A program made the position numbers and the translations under genes. The notes under the pieces were generated by a model. That model worked only from the letters and a program-made list of their open reading frames with translations, did not search any database and was not told the origin of the DNA. From Sabulicella rubraurantiaca (lineage in GTDB: Bacteria > Pseudomonadota > Alphaproteobacteria > Acetobacterales > Acetobacteraceae), in assembly GCF_017355885.1 (NCBI RefSeq), contig NZ_JAFEUU010000001.1, positions 124,001 through 188,000 of the forward strand: a stretch of DNA of 64,000 nt. Direction: 5' to 3'. Of this stretch, positions 16,749 to 23,031 are shown piece after piece. Every line of letters begins with the position of its first letter. Within the stretch, counting starts at the first letter, position 1.

Positions 16749-17252
16749 TCAGGCAGCCTTGCGGTTCACCCGGCTCTCGGCCACCGCCGTCAGCTTCTTG
16801 TCCGCGGCATATTCCTCATCGAGATTCTGCTGCAGGACGCTGGCGCAGTCATGGCGGCCAAGCTGCTTGGCGAAGGCGATCAGCGTGCCGTAGCGGGTGA
16901 TCTCGTAATGCTCCACCGCCTGGGCGGAGGAGATGATGGCGGCGTCGATCACGTCCTGGTCGGACACGTCGCCCAGGATGTCCTTTGCCTCGGAAATGAT
17001 GCCGTCCATGGCGGCGCAGGTCGTGCCCTTCACTTCCTGGCCATGCATCTGGAAGACCTGCTCCAGACGCTTGATCTGGTTCTGCGTCTCCGTGAGGTGC
17101 TGTTCCAGCCCCTGCTTGAGCTGTGAGTCACCGGCCTTGGAGATCATGGTCGGCAGGTTCTTCGCGATCTGCTGTTCGGCATAATAGATGTCCTGCAGCG
17201 TGTGCACGAACAGGTCGTCGAGGGTCTTGATCGGCTTCGAGAACAGGCCCAT
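16749..17252 (-). CDS. DUF892 ferritin-like protein (YciE/YciF type)
   Basis: 167 residues. The family opening SKPIKTLDDLFVHTLQDIYY is followed by AEQQIAKNLP, and the four-helix bundle carries E/H residues in LTETQNQIKRLEQVF, QAVEHYEITRYGTLIAFA and NLDEEYAADKKL. These could form a di-iron site. Homologues such as YciE/YciF are induced by stress and their function is not settled. AAGGA precedes ATG 17252. It is divergent from the SOS-controlled imuA. Confidence 0.9.
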   Translation of the reverse strand: MGLFSKPIKTLDDLFVHTLQDIYYAEQQIAKNLPTMISKAGDSQLKQGLEQHLTETQNQIKRLEQVFQMHGQEVKGTTCAAMDGIISEAKDILGDVSDQDVIDAAIISSAQAVEHYEITRYGTLIAFAKQLGRHDCASVLQQNLDEEYAADKKLTAVAESRVNRKAA

Positions 17253-17335
17253 GGCGTGGCATCCTTATGCTGATGGTAACGGCTCGCCGTCGCGGAAGGA
17301 ACGCGTTGCGCCGGGGGCGGTTTATCCAACGATAA

Positions 17336-17350
17336 GTTCTTGATCCGTTC
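17336..17350 (+). promoter_or_regulatory. LexA-binding site (SOS box) of imuA
   Basis: The sequence GTTC-TTGATCC-GTTC is a perfect match to the alphaproteobacterial LexA operator GTTC-N7-GTTC. It lies 27 bases before the imuA start, the expected place for a repressor site over a promoter. It also lies 83 bases upstream of the divergent ferritin-like gene. Confidence 0.85.
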
Positions 17351-17377
17351 TGAGGTGCGTGTCAGCGTCGCCGGCCT

Positions 17378-18097
17378 ATGCCCGATTCGCCCGCTCCTCA
17401 GGAATCCTCTCTCGATCCGCGTGGGATGGACCGCGCCGCGGTGCTGGCCGCGCTGCGCGCCCGCGTCGCCCGGCACAACCTGGCACCTGAAGCTGGCGAG
17501 ATCCCTCTGGCACCCGGCCTTCCCGGCATCGCCCGCGCGGCGGTGCATGAGATCCGCGCCACGGCGATCGGTTCCGGGACCGCGTTCAGCGCGATGGTGC
17601 TGGGACGCAGCGGGGGCACAGTGCTTTGGATCTCCGATGATCTGCTGCTCGCGCCCTGGCCCCCTGGCCTCGCCGCCCTCGGCCTAACGCCGGACCGGCT
17701 GGTGCTGGCGCAGGCGTCGCGTCCCATGGATGCACTCTGGGCGATGGAGGAGGCCCTGCGAAGCCCGGCGATCTCCGGGGTGTTGCTGCTGGGTGGGGCG
17801 GAGCCGGATTTGTCCGCGCAGCGGCGCCTGCAGCTTGCGGCCGCAGCGGGGGGCGGCGTCGGCCTCATCCTGCGGACGGAGGAGGAGCCGCCGCTGGCCG
17901 GCACGGCATCGCGGTGGCGCGTCGGCGGCATCGCCGGGATCGGTGGTCTTGCCGATCCGCGCTGGTCGCTGGAATTGCTGCGCGTCCGTGCAGGACGGCC
18001 CGCAGGCCCCTGGGCCGTGACTTGGCGCGCCTCCTCGGGCGAGATCGAACTGGACGAGGAGACGACGGCGGCGCTGCGCCAAACGAAAGCGGGCTAG
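17378..18097 (+). CDS. imuA: ImuA-type DNA damage mutagenesis protein
   Basis: 239 residues. The ImuA core is recognisable: AAVHEIRATAIGSGTAFSAM, a hydrophobic strand GGTVLWISDDLLLAPW, LAALGLTPDRLVLAQASRPM and ALWAMEEALRS. ImuA is a RecA-like accessory factor without a working Walker A motif that acts with ImuB and DnaE2 in error-prone lesion bypass. The LexA box upstream agrees. Unlike the usual imuA-imuB-dnaE2 cassette, no imuB or dnaE2 follows; the next gene is a convergent histidine kinase. ATG 17426 is an alternative start, giving 223 residues. Confidence 0.85.
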   Translation: MPDSPAPQESSLDPRGMDRAAVLAALRARVARHNLAPEAGEIPLAPGLPGIARAAVHEIRATAIGSGTAFSAMVLGRSGGTVLWISDDLLLAPWPPGLAALGLTPDRLVLAQASRPMDALWAMEEALRSPAISGVLLLGGAEPDLSAQRRLQLAAAAGGGVGLILRTEEEPPLAGTASRWRVGGIAGIGGLADPRWSLELLRVRAGRPAGPWAVTWRASSGEIELDEETTAALRQTKAG

Positions 18098-18103
18098 CGC
18101 CTG

Positions 18104-19555
18104 TCAGCCCAGGCTTTCGGCGGTGAGGAGCATGCGGCAAGTCACGCCTTCCGGGCGGTATTCCACTGTCGTGCCGCCGCCGGCGAACTGACCGAGGCCG
18201 CGGGCGATCACCGTCTCGCCAAAGCCGCGTCGCGCGGGCGGGCGGACCGGCGGGCCTCCCGCTTCCTCCCAAAGGATCTCGAGCCCGCCATCCTGGAGAC
18301 GCTGCCCAAGGATGGAGACGCGCCCGCTCTCGTTCGAGAGGGCGCCGTACTTCACGGCGTTGGTCACGAGTTCATGGAAGACGAGGCCGAGCGCGACCGC
18401 TGCGTCGCGCGACACCTCAACCTCCAGCCCCTGCATCGAGATGCGGGCGGAAAGGGCGGACACGTAGGGCGCCACCTCGGCGGCGATGAGTTGCTGCAAG
18501 GACAGGCCCGACAGCACCTTGCCTGCCAGGAGGTCCTGCGTCGCGGCGAGGGCCGAGAGTCGCTGGGTGAAGCGCTCCGCGAAGTCCTGCAGCCCCGTCG
18601 CGCCTTCCAGAGTGCGTGCGCTGATGGAGAGCACGAGGGCCAGCATGTTCTTCATGCGGTGGTCCAGCTCGCGCATCAGCAGTTCCTGGCGCTTCTCCAG
18701 TGCCCGCCGCTCCGACACGTCCATCAGCGTGACGATGCAGCCGCCCACCGCGCCGCCCGCCTTCCGAAGCGGCGAGACGCTGAGCAGGATGTCGCGCGTG
18801 CGCTGCGCCGTGCGGAGCGTCGCCTCCATCGCACGCGCCGCGCCGCCACGCAGCGCGACGGCCACGAGGTCGCCCGCATCCATCGCCCCGGCGCCCGGCG
18901 CGAAGGCGAGGGGGAAGGCTTCGCTGAAAGGTCGGCCCAGCGGGGAGACGCCCAGCATCTGCGTGGCGGCCGGGCTGGCATGGGAGACGATGCCTTGCGC
19001 GTCGCACACCGCCACCGCCTCTATCGCGGAGGCCATGATGGCGCGGCCGATGCGTTCGCTCTCCTCCCTCGCCACGGCATCCAGGCGTTGGGTGATATCG
19101 GTGAAGGTCAGGGCATGGCCTTCGCCATAGGGAAGGGGAAGGGGCGCCGCCGTGACCAGGAGGTGGCGCTGCCTCCCGTCAAGTTGCAGCGTTACCTCGG
19201 CGCTGCGCCGGCAGTTCTGTTCTGGCGCCAGCAGATCGCGCAGCGCCGCCCCCGCGACGCCCAGCGTCTCGAGCAAGCCCTGGCTCTCCAACATTCCTGC
19301 CGGGACGCCAAGCAGCCCCGGCAGCGCGGCATTGACGTAGAGGAGGCGGCCATCCGCATCCAGCGCCGCCGCGCCCAGCTCCATGGATTCCATGAAGGCG
19401 CGATAGGTCTCGTCACCGCCGACGAGATGGAAGACCTGCTCCCGTTCGACGCTCCGAACCACCAGCGCGTCCACCTCGCCCTCGCGGATGGCGCGCAACG
19501 TGTCCTCCGCCTCGGCTAGGCGGCGGCGCAGCTCGGACAGCTCGGGAGCGGACAC
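18104..19555 (-). CDS. PAS-domain sensor histidine kinase (HWE/HisKA_2 type) in the kai operon
   Basis: 483 residues from a GTG start at 19555. An N-terminal coiled segment leads into two PAS-like domains, about residues 45-155 and 165-285. The phospho-acceptor is His299 in LLMRELDHRMKNMLALVLSI, and the ATPase domain begins with HELVTNAVKYGAL (Asn399) and has WEEAGGPPVRPPARRGFGE. No membrane segment is seen, so it is probably cytosolic. It starts 2 bases past the kaiB stop, so it is the third gene of kaiC-kaiB-kinase. It is the likely output kinase of the Kai proteins. No response regulator gene is adjacent. Confidence 0.88.
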   Translation of the reverse strand: MSAPELSELRRRLAEAEDTLRAIREGEVDALVVRSVEREQVFHLVGGDETYRAFMESMELGAAALDADGRLLYVNAALPGLLGVPAGMLESQGLLETLGVAGAALRDLLAPEQNCRRSAEVTLQLDGRQRHLLVTAAPLPLPYGEGHALTFTDITQRLDAVAREESERIGRAIMASAIEAVAVCDAQGIVSHASPAATQMLGVSPLGRPFSEAFPLAFAPGAGAMDAGDLVAVALRGGAARAMEATLRTAQRTRDILLSVSPLRKAGGAVGGCIVTLMDVSERRALEKRQELLMRELDHRMKNMLALVLSISARTLEGATGLQDFAERFTQRLSALAATQDLLAGKVLSGLSLQQLIAAEVAPYVSALSARISMQGLEVEVSRDAAVALGLVFHELVTNAVKYGALSNESGRVSILGQRLQDGGLEILWEEAGGPPVRPPARRGFGETVIARGLGQFAGGGTTVEYRPEGVTCRMLLTAESLG

Positions 19556-19557
19556 GC

Positions 19558-19866
19558 TCAGCCCTCCCGATCCACCTGGAGGCTCACCAGCACCTTCTGC
19601 GTGTCTGACAGGTCGCCGATGATCTTCTGGATCGGCACCGGCAATTGCCGCACCAGCGTCGGGATTGCGACGATGTTGTGCTCCCGCGCCAGATGCGGCG
19701 AGACGCGAAGGTCCACCACCTCGATCGCATAGGAATCGCTACCGAGATGCTCCGCGCAGATCCGCTCCAGGTTGCGGATGGCGGCGACGGATTTCGGCGT
19801 CTGCCCCGCTACATAGAGGGTCAGCCGCAGGATGCCTGCGCCGTCCTCGTCCTGATTGCCCGTCAT
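19558..19866 (-). CDS. kaiB: Circadian clock protein KaiB
   Basis: 102 residues, the standard KaiB length. The thioredoxin-like fold is visible in [44 protein letters not shown] and [20 protein letters not shown]. KaiB binds KaiC and, in cyanobacteria, switches fold as part of the clock. The start overlaps the kaiC stop (ATGA), so expression is coupled. In proteobacteria KaiB-KaiC pairs act in timing or stress control. Confidence 0.95.
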
Positions 19867-21542
19867 TGCCGCCCCGTCCTGCGCCGCGCCTGCGCCATGT
19901 CCTGCCGGTCCTGGTCCATCGCACCGCGCAGGACACGTTCCGCTTCCAGCGAGTTCTCGTGTTCCAGCGTGTCCATCTCGAGTTCCGCCTGCAGAGCGGC
20001 CACCTGCGCCTCGGTGCGCCGCTGCCGCAGGGCTAGCTTGCGCTGCTCGATCTCCACCGCCGCGCGGCGCGCCGCTTCATCGCGCCGCGCCCGCGCCTCT
20101 TCCGCCCGGCGAGCCGAGCCGGTGAGGGCGCCGTGTTCGCCCAGATAGGGATCGAGCAGGCGGATGCCCTCGGAGTCCATCACGAACTCGCGCACCTGAT
20201 TGGAATGAGCGATACCGCGCGCCTTCAGCAGATAAAGCTCGCGGTTGAATTCGCCGCTCGCCTCGCGATTCAGCAGCAGGATCCAGCCATCCATCAGCGA
20301 GGACAGCCCGGCATCCGTCTCCGCGCGCCCTTGCTCATGCGCGAGGTGAGAGAACACGCCGGTGATTCCATTCGACTTCAGGAAGTCGATGATCCGCAGC
20401 AGCATGGACTGCACCTCGAGCGGATCGCCGGCATCGAGGAAGGCCGAGATCGGATCGAGCGCCACGATGGAGGGGCGGAAGCGCACCACCTCGCGCAGGA
20501 TCACGGCGAGATGCATTTCAAGGCTGTAGAAGGTCGGGCGGGCGGCCAGCATCCGCAGCAGGCCGCTCTCCACGCAGGGGCCGAGATCGATCCCGACGGA
20601 GCGCATGTTGCGGATCGTCTGCGGGCCCGACTCCTCGAAGGAGATGTAGAGCGCCCTTTCCCCGGCCCGGCACGCGGCGGCCAGGAACGAAGCGACGATC
20701 GTGCTCTTGCCCGAGCCCGCGACGCCGGTCAGCAGGATGGAGGAGCCGCGATGGAAGCCGCCCCCCTCCATCATCGCGTCCAGGTCCGGAATGCCGCTAG
20801 CGATGCGATCCTCCGACACCTTGTGCTGGAGCCCGACCGAGGAGACGGGCAGGACGCTGAAGCCGTCCGTGTCGATCAGGAACGGATATTCATTGGTTCC
20901 GTGGGCCGAGCCACGATACTTCACGATCCGGAGGCGCCGGGTGGAGACCTGGTTGTTGACGCGGTGGTCCAGCAGGATCACGCAATCGGAGACATATTCC
21001 TCCAGGCCCTGCCGCGTCAGCGCGCCGTCGCCGCGCTCGCCGGTGATGACGGCGGTCAGGCCCTTCTGCTTCAGCCAGTCGAAGAGGCGCCGGATCTCAG
21101 CACGCAGGATCGCCTGGTTGGTGAAGGCGGAAAACAGGCTCTCCACCGTGTCGAGCACGATGCGCTTCGCGCCGACGGAATCGACCGCCAGCTCCAGCCG
21201 CAGGAACAGCCCCTCGAGGTCGTAATCGCCTGCCTCGGCCAGTTGTGAGGGGTCGAGGGCGATATGCTCGAAGGCGACCCGCCCCTCGGCGACCAGCTCA
21301 TCCAGAGCGAAGCCCAGCGAGGCGACATTGTCGACGATGTCCTCGGGCCGCTCCTCGAAGGTGACGAAGACGCCCGGTTCGTCGAACTCACGCGCCCCGT
21401 TGATGAGGAAGGTCGAGGCGAAAAGCGTCTTGCCGCACCCGGCGGAGCCGCAGACGAGCGTCGGCCGGCCGGCGGGAAGCCCACCCAGCGTCAACTCGTC
21501 AAAACCCTCGACCCCCGTCGGCGCCTTCCGGATCCCCGCCAT
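19863..21542 (-). CDS. kaiC: Circadian clock ATPase/kinase KaiC
   Basis: 559 residues from ATG 21542 (GAGG five bases upstream; ATG 21614 is an alternative). Two RecA-like domains each keep a Walker A motif (GSAGCGKT 32-39; GVAGSGKST 273-281) and a catalytic glutamate pair (63-64 and 303-304). The CII phosphorylation pair, Ser431-Thr432 in Synechococcus, aligns with Ser414-Ser415 in LSSLMD. After the core, residues about 476-559 form a charged coiled-coil tail absent from the cyanobacterial protein, as in KaiC2-type proteins. First gene of the kai operon. Confidence 0.95.
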
Positions 21543-21729
21543 CCCTGCCTCTGTCGGCTCTTCTTCATCGGTTATGACAGCAAATCGGGCGAGGGCAATG
21601 CTCTCGTAGATCATGGATGCCAAGACAGGCTTTTGGCCTGGGTCTCCGGCACCAAGGGCCAGGAAACCCGGCACCCCGCGCTGCCCTTGAAAGGCCGCGC
21701 GGGCCGCCGCGCCGACCGACGGAGAACGC

Positions 21730-23031
21730 ATGATCAGCGCGACCCTCCCGCCCAGTGCGGCCGAGGCCTTACACCCGGCCGACCTTGCGACCCTCCTGGA
21801 GAAGCGGGCGCCGGCGACGGCTTGGGAAACCCTTACGACCTTGCCTCTCCCCCGGCGCGCCGAGACCTTCGGATACCTTTCCCCGGCCTGCCAAGCCGCG
21901 TTGGCGGGTGTCAGCCCGACTCCGGCCCTGGCGGAACTCCTGACCGCCATGGACGCGGATGAGCGGGCCGATCTTTGGGGACGTCTGCCCGAAGAGGCGC
22001 GCGAGGCCGTGGGCCGCGCCCTTGCCGCGGCGGAGCGCGAGGACATCCGGCGCCTTGCTTCCTATCCACCCGGCACGGCCGGCGCGGTGATGACCAGCGA
22101 ATACGCGGTGCTCTCGCCCGGACTTTCGGCGCGAGACGCGATAGAGGCGCTGCGTGGCCAGGCGGCGACGAAGGAAACCATCCTCGTCGCCTATGTGCTT
22201 TCCCCCGAGCGCCGCCTGCTGGGGACCGTGTCTCTGGAAGATCTGGTCCTGTCGCCCGCCACGCTCAGCGCCGCGGCCCTGATGCGGCCGGACCCGCCCT
22301 CCGTAGGAGCGGAGGAGCCGGCGTCCCACGCCGCGCGCGTCGTGCAGCATTACGACCTCCCCGCCGTGCCGGTGCTGGACGCGACCGGGGCCATGGTCGG
22401 CATCGTGACCGCCGACGACGCCATGGACGTGGCCGAAGCCGAGGCGACGGAGGATTTCGAGAAGTCGAGCGGCACCGGGGCGGGACTTGTCGCCGAGATG
22501 GGGCGCGCCAGCGTGCCGCTTCTCTACAGCAAGCGCGTCGGATGGCTGGTCGCGCTGGTCTTCGCCAATATCCTTTCCGGTGCCGGGATCGCCGCCTTCG
22601 AGGAGACAATCAGCGCCAACCTTGCCTTGGTGTTCTTCCTGCCTCTGCTGATCGCCAGCGCGGGCAATGCCGGTGCCCAGGCGGCGACGCTCACCGTGCG
22701 CGCCATGGCGACGGGAGAGGTCCGCATGGCGGATTGGGGCCGCCTGATCTCGCGCGAGGCGCTGGTGGCACTCGCCCTCGGCGTCACCATGGCAGTGGCG
22801 GTGGCAGGAATCGGCATATGGCGGGGCGGGGCGGAGATCGCGCTGGTAGTGGCGCTGACCATGGTGCTGGTGGTGCTGGCGGGCAGCCTGGTCGGGCTGT
22901 CCTTGCCCTTCCTGCTGGACCGATTGCATCTCGATCCGGCTTCGGCCAGCGCGCCGCTCGTCACCTCGCTCGCCGACATCGCGGGGGTGATGATCTATTT
23001 CAGCATCGCCTCCGTGGTGCTGAGTAGCTGA
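21730..23031 (+). CDS. mgtE: MgtE-type magnesium transporter
   Basis: 433 residues. The N-terminal helical domain (about 1-120) is followed by paired CBS domains (about 125-245; DLPAVPVLDATGAMVGIVTA) and five membrane helices. The pore region has FFLPLLIASAGNAGAQAATL and the last helix pair has DPASASAPLVTSLADIAG. MgtE channels import Mg2+ and are gated by cytosolic Mg2+ binding at the N and CBS domains. It is divergent from kaiC across 187 bp and ends 6 bp from mnhG on the other strand. Confidence 0.92.
   Translation: MISATLPPSAAEALHPADLATLLEKRAPATAWETLTTLPLPRRAETFGYLSPACQAALAGVSPTPALAELLTAMDADERADLWGRLPEEAREAVGRALAAAEREDIRRLASYPPGTAGAVMTSEYAVLSPGLSARDAIEALRGQAATKETILVAYVLSPERRLLGTVSLEDLVLSPATLSAAALMRPDPPSVGAEEPASHAARVVQHYDLPAVPVLDATGAMVGIVTADDAMDVAEAEATEDFEKSSGTGAGLVAEMGRASVPLLYSKRVGWLVALVFANILSGAGIAAFEETISANLALVFFLPLLIASAGNAGAQAATLTVRAMATGEVRMADWGRLISREALVALALGVTMAVAVAGIGIWRGGAEIALVVALTMVLVVLAGSLVGLSLPFLLDRLHLDPASASAPLVTSLADIAGVMIYFSIASVVLSS

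What the first reader, a model, noticed from the sequence alone, without database searches (positions are those of the whole stretch)
18104..21542. A three-gene kaiC-kaiB-histidine kinase operon outside cyanobacteria
Seen: kaiC, kaiB and a PAS/HWE-type kinase are on one strand, joined by ATGA overlap and a 2-bp gap with a GTG start. Known: cyanobacterial KaiC signals through a separate kinase (SasA), and some purple bacteria have kaiBC linked to a kinase. Inference: this is a complete input-output unit of a proto-clock or stress timer, without KaiA. HWE-type kinases in alphaproteobacteria often feed general stress response regulators, so the output may be the PhyR-EcfG pathway.
Basis: partly seen in the sequence, partly recalled or inferred. 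Interest (0 to 1): 0.7.

Follow-up and report, generated by a model that had tools for sequence, protein, structure and literature searches.

The report
Kai timer operon with shared adaptor
The three genes are a known kind of simple bacterial day-night timer plus a signalling kinase, but the kinase starts with a short conserved piece that is also found on quite different signalling enzymes beside the same timer genes in bacteria and archaea, which may be how this timer passes on its signal.

Summary
Observation confirmed. Minus strand: kaiC 21542-19863, kaiB 19866-19558 (ATGA overlap), GTG-start PAS-PAS-HWE kinase 19555-18104 (2-bp gap). The operon is not new: it is the Rhodobacter sphaeroides/Rhodopseudomonas KaiC2-type kaiC-kaiB-kinase unit, already published.

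What I did not find described is how the kinase could read the timer. It lacks SasA's KaiB-like domain. Instead residues ~8-62 form a conserved module (LRxRLxEAEETLRAIRxGEVDALVV...); residues 8-34 are the most conserved 27-residue window of the kinase. I searched 1242 genomes (alpha- and gammaproteobacteria, Bacteroidia, an archaeal phylum) with it. All 37 non-seed hits of 33 bits or more lie in a kaiB locus: 34 directly after or fused to kaiB, 3 as second effectors beside it. None of the 8 hits below 25 bits has kaiB within 1.5 kb. The module heads HWE, HisKA and HisKA_2 kinases, hybrid kinases and GGDEF-EAL enzymes; two ORFs fuse KaiB directly to it.

Best reading: an energy-state hourglass whose KaiB/KaiC state is read by this plug-in module. 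Physical binding is inferred, not shown. PhyR exists in the genome, but a PhyR output is untested.

The parts
19863..21542 (-). kaiC, KaiC2 / R. sphaeroides type, 559 aa
   Evidence: Pfam PF06745 in two stretches; PDB 8dba E 2e-267 over residues 3-547
20298..20303 (-). Ser-Ser phosphorylation pair of KaiC (S414, S415 in this numbering), in [11 protein letters not shown]
   Evidence: aligned with the pair that is SS in 8dba and E-E in 8fwi
19863..20105 (-). C-terminal extension of KaiC (about residue 480 on), coiled-coil-forming in the R. sphaeroides protein
   Evidence: alignment to 8dba runs through the tail to residue 547; tails of relatives printed; coiled coil itself from PMC10076222 (abstract and passages)
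19558..19866 (-). kaiB, 102 aa, ATGA overlap with kaiC
   Evidence: Pfam PF07689 86.1 bits; PDB 8fwj KaiB E 6e-34
18104..19555 (-). PAS-PAS-HWE histidine kinase, 483 aa, GTG start
   Evidence: Pfam PAS_4, HWE_HK; catalytic part like blue-light-activated histidine kinase 5epv/6ph4
19370..19534 (-). kai-linked N-terminal module (kinase residues 8-62)
   Evidence: alignment A1; genome scans with kaiB neighbourhood checks
19454..19534 (-). module core, residues 8-34 (ELRRRLAEAEDTLRAIREGEVDALVVR), most conserved 27-residue window of the kinase
   Evidence: rank 1 of 457 windows of 27 residues over 41 kinases
19076..19390 (-). PAS domain 1 of the kinase (about residues 56-160)
   Evidence: Pfam PAS_7 56-160
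18701..19045 (-). PAS domain 2 of the kinase (about residues 171-285)
   Evidence: Pfam PAS 171-280 / PAS_4 179-285
18428..18670 (-). HWE dimerisation/phospho-acceptor region, conserved H299
   Evidence: Pfam HWE_HK 296-376; H299 invariant in 41 kinases

Best explanation
It is a KaiC2-KaiB hourglass operon of the R. sphaeroides type (no kaiA in the operon) with its dedicated effector. KaiC (Ser-Ser sites, coiled-coil tail) would autophosphorylate when ATP/ADP is high and be switched by KaiB as ATP/ADP falls (shown for the R. sphaeroides proteins by others; inferred here from sequence). The kinase carries no SasA-like KaiB domain; instead its N-terminal ~55-residue module, placed before PAS1, is the piece that docks on KaiB, or on the KaiB-KaiC complex, and transmits the timer state through the PAS domains to the catalytic part. 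The same module is put on other catalytic parts (HisKA, HisKA_2, hybrid kinases, GGDEF-EAL) after kaiC-kaiB(-kaiB') in other lineages, so it behaves as a general plug between this timer and different signalling outputs. Shown: operon structure, family membership, the module's linkage to kaiB loci, its conservation, its presence on different effectors, two KaiB-module fusion ORFs. Inferred: physical binding, direction of signal, target regulator.
For: Operon and KaiC2-type KaiC; the same trio is annotated on R. sphaeroides 2.4.1 plasmid pB and its kinase has the module (82 bits). Linkage: 41 hits of 33.3 bits or more in 1242 genomes (4 in seed genomes); all 37 non-seed hits are in a kaiB locus, 34 directly after or fused to kaiB and 3 as second effectors in the same locus; all 8 hits of 24.4 bits or less have no kaiB within 1.5 kb (with 37, 41, 60, 62; tally). 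The 37 are at most 69.1% identical to any seed row. Of 38 kai genomes searched whole (38 of the 80 loci were given), 37 have exactly one module hit. Different effectors: 30 module proteins scanned one by one. Conservation at the level of the catalytic motifs. KaiB-module fusions: L118 and L252.
Against: The module search was trained on kai-linked proteins only, so a diverged kai-free branch scoring under about 25 bits would be missed or counted as noise. Linkage could mean common descent of the effector N-terminus rather than binding. L113 keeps kaiC-kaiB without the module. Of 14 kaiB-positive alphaproteobacterial genomes 9 lack it, as do 13 of 19 gammaproteobacterial ones. The short H-box and N-box segments (19 residues each, 3.71 and 3.78 bits a column) are as conserved as or slightly more than the module core (3.68), so its conservation is equal to, not above, that of the catalytic motifs. 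The L252 module match is weak (33 bits), and L118 is one metagenome-assembled contig.
Confidence: 0.6

Rival explanations
1. The module is only a dimerising N-cap of PAS1 inherited from one ancestral effector; contact with KaiB/KaiC is made by PAS1 or the coiled linker, and the module relays the signal or holds the dimer.
For: A PAS match follows the module in all 30 module proteins scanned; heptad-like spacing of L9, L13, A16, L20, I23 is visible in the sequence; M58, G61, A62 at the module end and N75 in PAS1 are invariant too.
Against: PAS1 is the least conserved of the regions compared (2.26 bits a column against 3.68 for residues 8-34); two ORFs put KaiB directly before the module.
Confidence: 0.22
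2. The kinase is an input: it senses redox or another cue through PAS and acts on KaiB/KaiC, rather than reading them.
For: PMC5520375 (passage) reports that the R. [quoted passage not shown]
Against: Effectors of other operons have GGDEF-EAL (c-di-GMP) or receiver domains, which fit outputs better (inference); KaiC of this type already responds to ATP/ADP (PMC10076222, abstract).
Confidence: 0.12
3. The kinase feeds the PhyR-NepR-EcfG general stress response, as the first reader proposed (compatible with the main explanation; concerns only the downstream step).
For: HWE-type kinase; weak similarity of its catalytic part to PhyK (NF051872, 30 bits against a cut-off of 750); a PhyR homologue in the genome; no response regulator in the operon.
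Against: No linkage to the PhyR locus (other contig); HWE kinases have other targets too (recalled); the module also sits on non-HWE effectors.
Confidence: 0.25
4. The three genes are only co-inherited and the kinase has no functional tie to KaiBC.
For: No experiment here shows an interaction; L113 and, with a more distant KaiC, L172 and L174 do without such an effector next to kaiB.
Against: Linkage over bacteria and archaea with different catalytic parts behind the same module, correlated KaiC and kinase distances over 63 trios (r 0.81), two KaiB fusions.
Confidence: 0.03

Closest known systems
R. sphaeroides KaiC-KaiB hourglass (PDB 8dba, 8fwi, 8fwj; PMC10076222, abstract and passages)
   Same: KaiC alignable over residues 3-547 incl. 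Ser-Ser pair and C-terminal tail, KaiB E 6e-34, same kaiC-kaiB-HWE kinase order on plasmid pB, kinase with the same module
   Different: 'histidine kinase' and 'operon' do not occur in that paper's main text. Dodecamer and kinetics not tested for this protein
R. palustris kaiC-kaiB-PAS/HK proto-circadian operon (PMC4794148, passages)
   Same: Same gene order; Rhodopseudomonas loci L050, L052, L054, L074 carry the same trio with module
   Different: Role of the kinase not described in the passages seen
Cyanobacterial SasA output kinase
   Same: Kinase dedicated to reading Kai proteins; the fused ORF L252 (KaiB-module-PAS-PAS-HisKA-HATPase) comes close to SasA's layout
   Different: Window kinase has no KaiB-like domain and is of HWE type (SasA's HisKA type is recalled); it has the module instead
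RtaNt kinases of kaiC-HK pairs without kaiB (Ramlibacter, PMC3164672, section 17 read)
   Same: A kinase proposed to read KaiC through a specific N-terminus
   Different: That group lacks kaiB, and its N-terminus was likened to SasA/KaiB; all 41 strong module hits here are in kaiB loci. The RtaNt sequence itself was not compared here

Membership tests
KaiC2 / R. sphaeroides-type KaiC | two KaiC ATPase domains | tested here: met
   PF06745, two stretches, 346.9 bits
KaiC2 / R. sphaeroides-type KaiC | Ser-Ser phosphorylation pair | tested here: met
   [11 protein letters not shown] aligned to the same sites of 8dba
KaiC2 / R. sphaeroides-type KaiC | C-terminal extension of about 50 residues | tested here: met
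   alignment to 8dba through residue 547 of 559
KaiC2 / R. sphaeroides-type KaiC | dodecamer through coiled-coil bundle; ATP/ADP-driven hourglass | not testable with these tools
   needs purified protein
KaiC2 / R. sphaeroides-type KaiC | absence of KaiA from the genome | not tested
   no kaiA in the operon; genome not searched for it
SasA | N-terminal KaiB-like domain on the kinase | tested here: not met
   no KaiB match on the kinase in Pfam or NCBIfam at E 0.001
HWE histidine kinases | HWE phospho-acceptor region with conserved His; W-x-E in the catalytic domain | tested here: met
   PF07536 73.7 bits; H299, W429, E431 invariant in 41 kinases; that W-x-E is a signature is recalled
PhyR-EcfG general stress response input kinase | phosphotransfer to PhyR | not testable with these tools
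   PhyR homologue present in the genome; no linkage
kai-linked module proteins (this report) | module directly after kaiC-kaiB(-kaiB') or fused to KaiB | tested here: met
   window kinase residues 8-62, 98.4 bits, about 40 nt after the KaiB match

The most novel reading that the evidence does not exclude
The N-terminal module is an undescribed, ancient KaiB/KaiC-reading domain, a second solution beside SasA's KaiB-like domain. It plugs the KaiC2-KaiB energy-state hourglass into whatever signalling enzyme is at hand (HWE, HisKA and HisKA_2 kinases, phosphorelays, c-di-GMP enzymes) in bacteria and archaea, and in some lineages drives two effectors from one timer.
Probability: 0.45. Interest if true: 0.8.

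Novelty: new variant of a known kind. Interest (0 to 1): 0.6.

Why it matters
How KaiBC timers outside cyanobacteria signal is open: PMC5520375 (passage) concluded that SasA homologues there lack the KaiB-like domain, so that stimulation by KaiC is very unlikely. A short module that is tied to kaiB loci and carried by different effectors gives a concrete candidate for the missing link. It can be tested at once in R. sphaeroides 2.4.1, where KaiC and KaiB are already solved and the kinase with the module is the next gene. It would also give a sequence marker for finding functional KaiC2 timers and predicting their outputs, c-di-GMP included.

Tried and rejected
Considered and rejected: (a) a SasA-like KaiB domain on the window kinase: none at E 0.001. 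(b) The module as a common PAS extension: the own genome has one hit with the single query (next best E 0.08) and with the profile, and 37 of 38 kai genomes have exactly one. (c) The module as a general KaiC partner: the own genome has three other double-domain KaiC paralogues, while kaiB has one copy; two of the three are followed by HisKA hybrid kinases (the third was not scanned), and no module match lies near them. (d) Every kaiB locus has the module: not so. In the loci fetched with long flanks, kaiB loci without the module have a KaiC of at most 365 bits to this KaiC, except L113 (666), while those with it have 508 bits or more, except where kaiC is in fragments (L177, L178, L254) or absent (L252). 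In the gammaproteobacterial loci with 1.5-kb flanks two (L209, L222) show no KaiC at all, so nothing can be said of theirs.

Led nowhere: PDB search with the module profile gave nothing better than E 0.03. Promoter scan: no sigma-70-like site in 17300-21900; three terminator-like matches against 1.7 in shuffles, one of them on the right strand at the kinase stop (18111-18090). Literature: no papers for the fusion terms, for a five-term kaiBC/kinase query or for four module peptides. These searches cover only openly licensed PubMed Central papers, so 'not described' is limited to them.

Full report
1. The observation. Reading the minus strand, kaiC (21542-19863), kaiB (19866-19558) and a histidine kinase (19555-18104, GTG) follow each other with an ATGA overlap and a 2-bp gap, exactly as reported. 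Pfam and NCBIfam confirm KaiC (two ATPase stretches), KaiB, and a kinase with two PAS domains and an HWE region. Upstream lies a divergent magnesium transporter gene (mgtE); downstream an ImuA-like gene points towards the kinase and ends 6 bp from its stop. The unit therefore contains three genes and no response regulator.

2. What it is. KaiC matches the solved R. sphaeroides KaiC (8dba) with E 2e-267 from residue 3 to 547, including the Ser-Ser phosphorylation pair and the C-terminal tail. KaiB is nearest to the KaiB of 8fwj. In R. sphaeroides 2.4.1 itself the same three genes are annotated on plasmid pB. The genome is probably a Roseococcus: the nearest KaiC in named genomes, at 94%, is from Roseococcus sp. 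MDT2-1-1; this is inferred from one gene. The operon is patchy. A match to the kinase with E <= 1e-60 occurs in 2 of 60 genomes drawn from the family, the own genome and one of its genus, and KaiB (E <= 1e-8) in 14 of 385 drawn from the class, the own genome included. Two other Roseococcus species (L083, L099) have a trio whose kinase is closest, after each other, to Devosia (73-75%), whereas the window's is closest, after Roseococcus sp. L041 (92%), to Paracraurococcus and Belnapia (58-59%) and then Sphingomonadales. KaiC and kinase distances over 63 trios (the window and 62 of the 80 loci; 18 were dropped for a missing part, a short kinase or a KaiC below 800 bits) correlate (r 0.81, Mantel p 0.001). 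The trio thus seems to move between lineages as a unit.

3. Is it known? Yes as an operon. PMC4794148 speaks of 'a kaiC-B-PAS/HK operon (as in R. palustris)' in R. sphaeroides (passage). PMC5520375 mentions the kinase in an operon with kaiBC (passage), PMC6627678 the PAS protein (passage). PMC3164672 found, outside cyanobacteria, a kinase or GGDEF/EAL protein immediately downstream of kaiC or kaiB in almost all kaiC-kaiB clusters it compared (section 17 read in full). PMC10076222 explains the KaiC-KaiB hourglass of this type: a dodecamer through the tail, driven by ATP/ADP (abstract and passages); 'histidine kinase' does not occur in its main text.

4. The open point and the new observation. 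PMC5520375 concludes that kinases outside cyanobacteria lack SasA's KaiB-like domain and so are very unlikely to be stimulated by KaiC (passage). The window kinase indeed lacks it. Comparing the 80 KaiC loci (the best 80 of 142), I saw that in the distant ones the downstream effector shares little more than the N-terminus with the window kinase. That shared piece, residues about 8-62, was aligned from 28 sequences (A1). No Pfam or NCBIfam best stretch shown starts before residue 49 of the kinase, and no solved structure matches A1 better than E 0.03. Over 41 kinases (the window and 40 of the alphaproteobacterial loci) residues 8-34 are the most conserved window of 27 residues out of 457 (3.68 bits a column); the next, apart from its neighbours, lie around the phospho-acceptor His (3.59). 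Taken as 19-residue segments, the H-box (3.71) and N-box (3.78) are equal or slightly higher. PAS1 (2.26) is the least conserved region compared. The module is thus conserved like the catalytic motifs.

5. Test of linkage. A1 was run against genomes drawn from four groups: 385 of the window's class (alphaproteobacteria), 258 of the class of L117, a Comamonadaceae MAG (Gammaproteobacteria in GTDB, recalled), 295 of the class of L115, Pedobacter (Bacteroidia), and 304 of the archaeal phylum of L107, Candidatus Methanoperedens; 1242 in all. The 49 hits with E <= 1e-3 fall into two sets: 41 with 33.3 bits or more and 8 with 24.4 or less. Four of the 41 are in genomes that gave a row of A1. The other 37 are at most 69.1% identical to any row. 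KaiB (a profile built from these loci) and KaiC were sought around every hit. All 37 lie in a kaiB locus: 34 directly downstream of kaiB or fused to it (4 alpha, 5 gamma, 12 Bacteroidia, 13 archaeal), and 3 archaeal ones as second effectors of the same locus, one in tandem (L259) and two divergent beyond kaiC (L253, L255). None of the 8 low hits has kaiB within 1.5 kb. At genome level, the 5 alphaproteobacterial genomes with a strong hit are all among the 14 with KaiB, and the 6 gammaproteobacterial ones among the 19 with KaiB (hypergeometric 3e-8 and 7e-8; without the seed genomes about 1e-6 each; relatedness not corrected). Of 38 kai genomes searched whole, 37 have exactly one hit and L113's genome has none. 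Two limits: A1 was built from kai-linked proteins, so diverged kai-free relatives could score too low to be seen; and the converse does not hold, since 9 of 14 alpha and 13 of 19 gamma kaiB genomes lack the module. In the loci with long flanks, those without it have a more distant KaiC (at most 365 bits to this KaiC) except L113, and those with it 508 bits or more unless kaiC is fragmented (L177, L178, L254) or absent (L252).

6. Different outputs. Of 30 module proteins scanned one by one, 5 are HWE kinases, 1 HisKA_2, 6 HisKA without a receiver domain, 4 HisKA with a receiver domain, 5 GGDEF-EAL, 7 have an HATPase domain but no HisKA match, and 2 (L179, a 218-aa ORF, and L259's second effector) show PAS only. 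In all 30 a PAS match follows the module. In two ORFs KaiB and the module are one frame: L118 (KaiB-module-PAS-GAF-GGDEF-EAL; the near relative L116 has the two genes separate) and the archaeal L252 (KaiB-module-PAS-PAS-HisKA-HATPase, no kaiC seen in its 12 kb, in a genome with a complete kai operon elsewhere, L251). L118 is a single metagenome contig and the module in L252 is a weak match.

7. Mechanism. The simplest reading is that KaiC2-KaiB forms an ATP/ADP-driven hourglass, and that the module, next to PAS1, lets the effector read the KaiB/KaiC state. The invariant residues (L9, R12, E15, A16, E17, A22, I23, D29, A30) would suit a helix with a coiled-coil face (L9, L13, A16, L20, I23) and a conserved second face; this is inference from spacing, as no structure could be predicted. 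The fusions and the gene order point to KaiB as the partner. Whether the kinase is output or input, and its target regulator, are not shown.

8. Verdict. The operon is a member of a known kind and would alone rate low. The kai-linked N-terminal module, found on different effectors in bacteria and archaea and not met in the paper searches made, is what raises the interest: it turns an open question into a direct test in an organism with solved Kai proteins.

Noticed in passing
window 17378-18097 (+): ImuA/SulA-like gene (NF033429, 52 bits, under its cut-off of 150), convergent with the kinase gene, 6 bp apart.
   Followed up: no
window 16749-17252 (-): DUF892 protein (PF05974, 209.8 bits) close to the operon.
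   Followed up: no
L009, L010, L011 (own genome C14, C11 near 471.6 kb, C58): Three further double-domain KaiC paralogues beside a single kaiB in the genome; those in L009 and L010 are followed by HisKA hybrid kinases, and no module match lies there.
   Followed up: partly
L253, L255, L259: Archaeal kai loci with two module-bearing effectors each, divergent (L253, L255) or in tandem (L259): one timer, possibly two outputs.
   Followed up: partly
L106, L107, L110-L112, L115-L119, L176, L181-L192, L194-L196, L249-L251, L253, L255-L261: A second kaiB gene between kaiB and the effector in most operons outside the close alphaproteobacterial trio; role unknown, perhaps a SasA-like reader in split form.
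   Followed up: no
L172, L174: kaiC-kaiB pairs with long KaiC tails but no module; the next ORF downstream is YdjM-like or SHMT, not a signalling effector.
   Followed up: partly
L167: kaiB-kaiC order with REC-domain proteins on both sides, perhaps related to the KaiA3-KaiB3-KaiC3 system of PMC11372060 (passages); not tested.
   Followed up: no
G544 kai locus (L163, L179, L221): kaiB with an internal stop and a module ORF of 218 aa showing PAS only: a probably decayed or misassembled operon.
   Followed up: no
L177, L178, L254: Module loci in which kaiC matches lie in fragments of different frames: decay or sequence errors.
   Followed up: no
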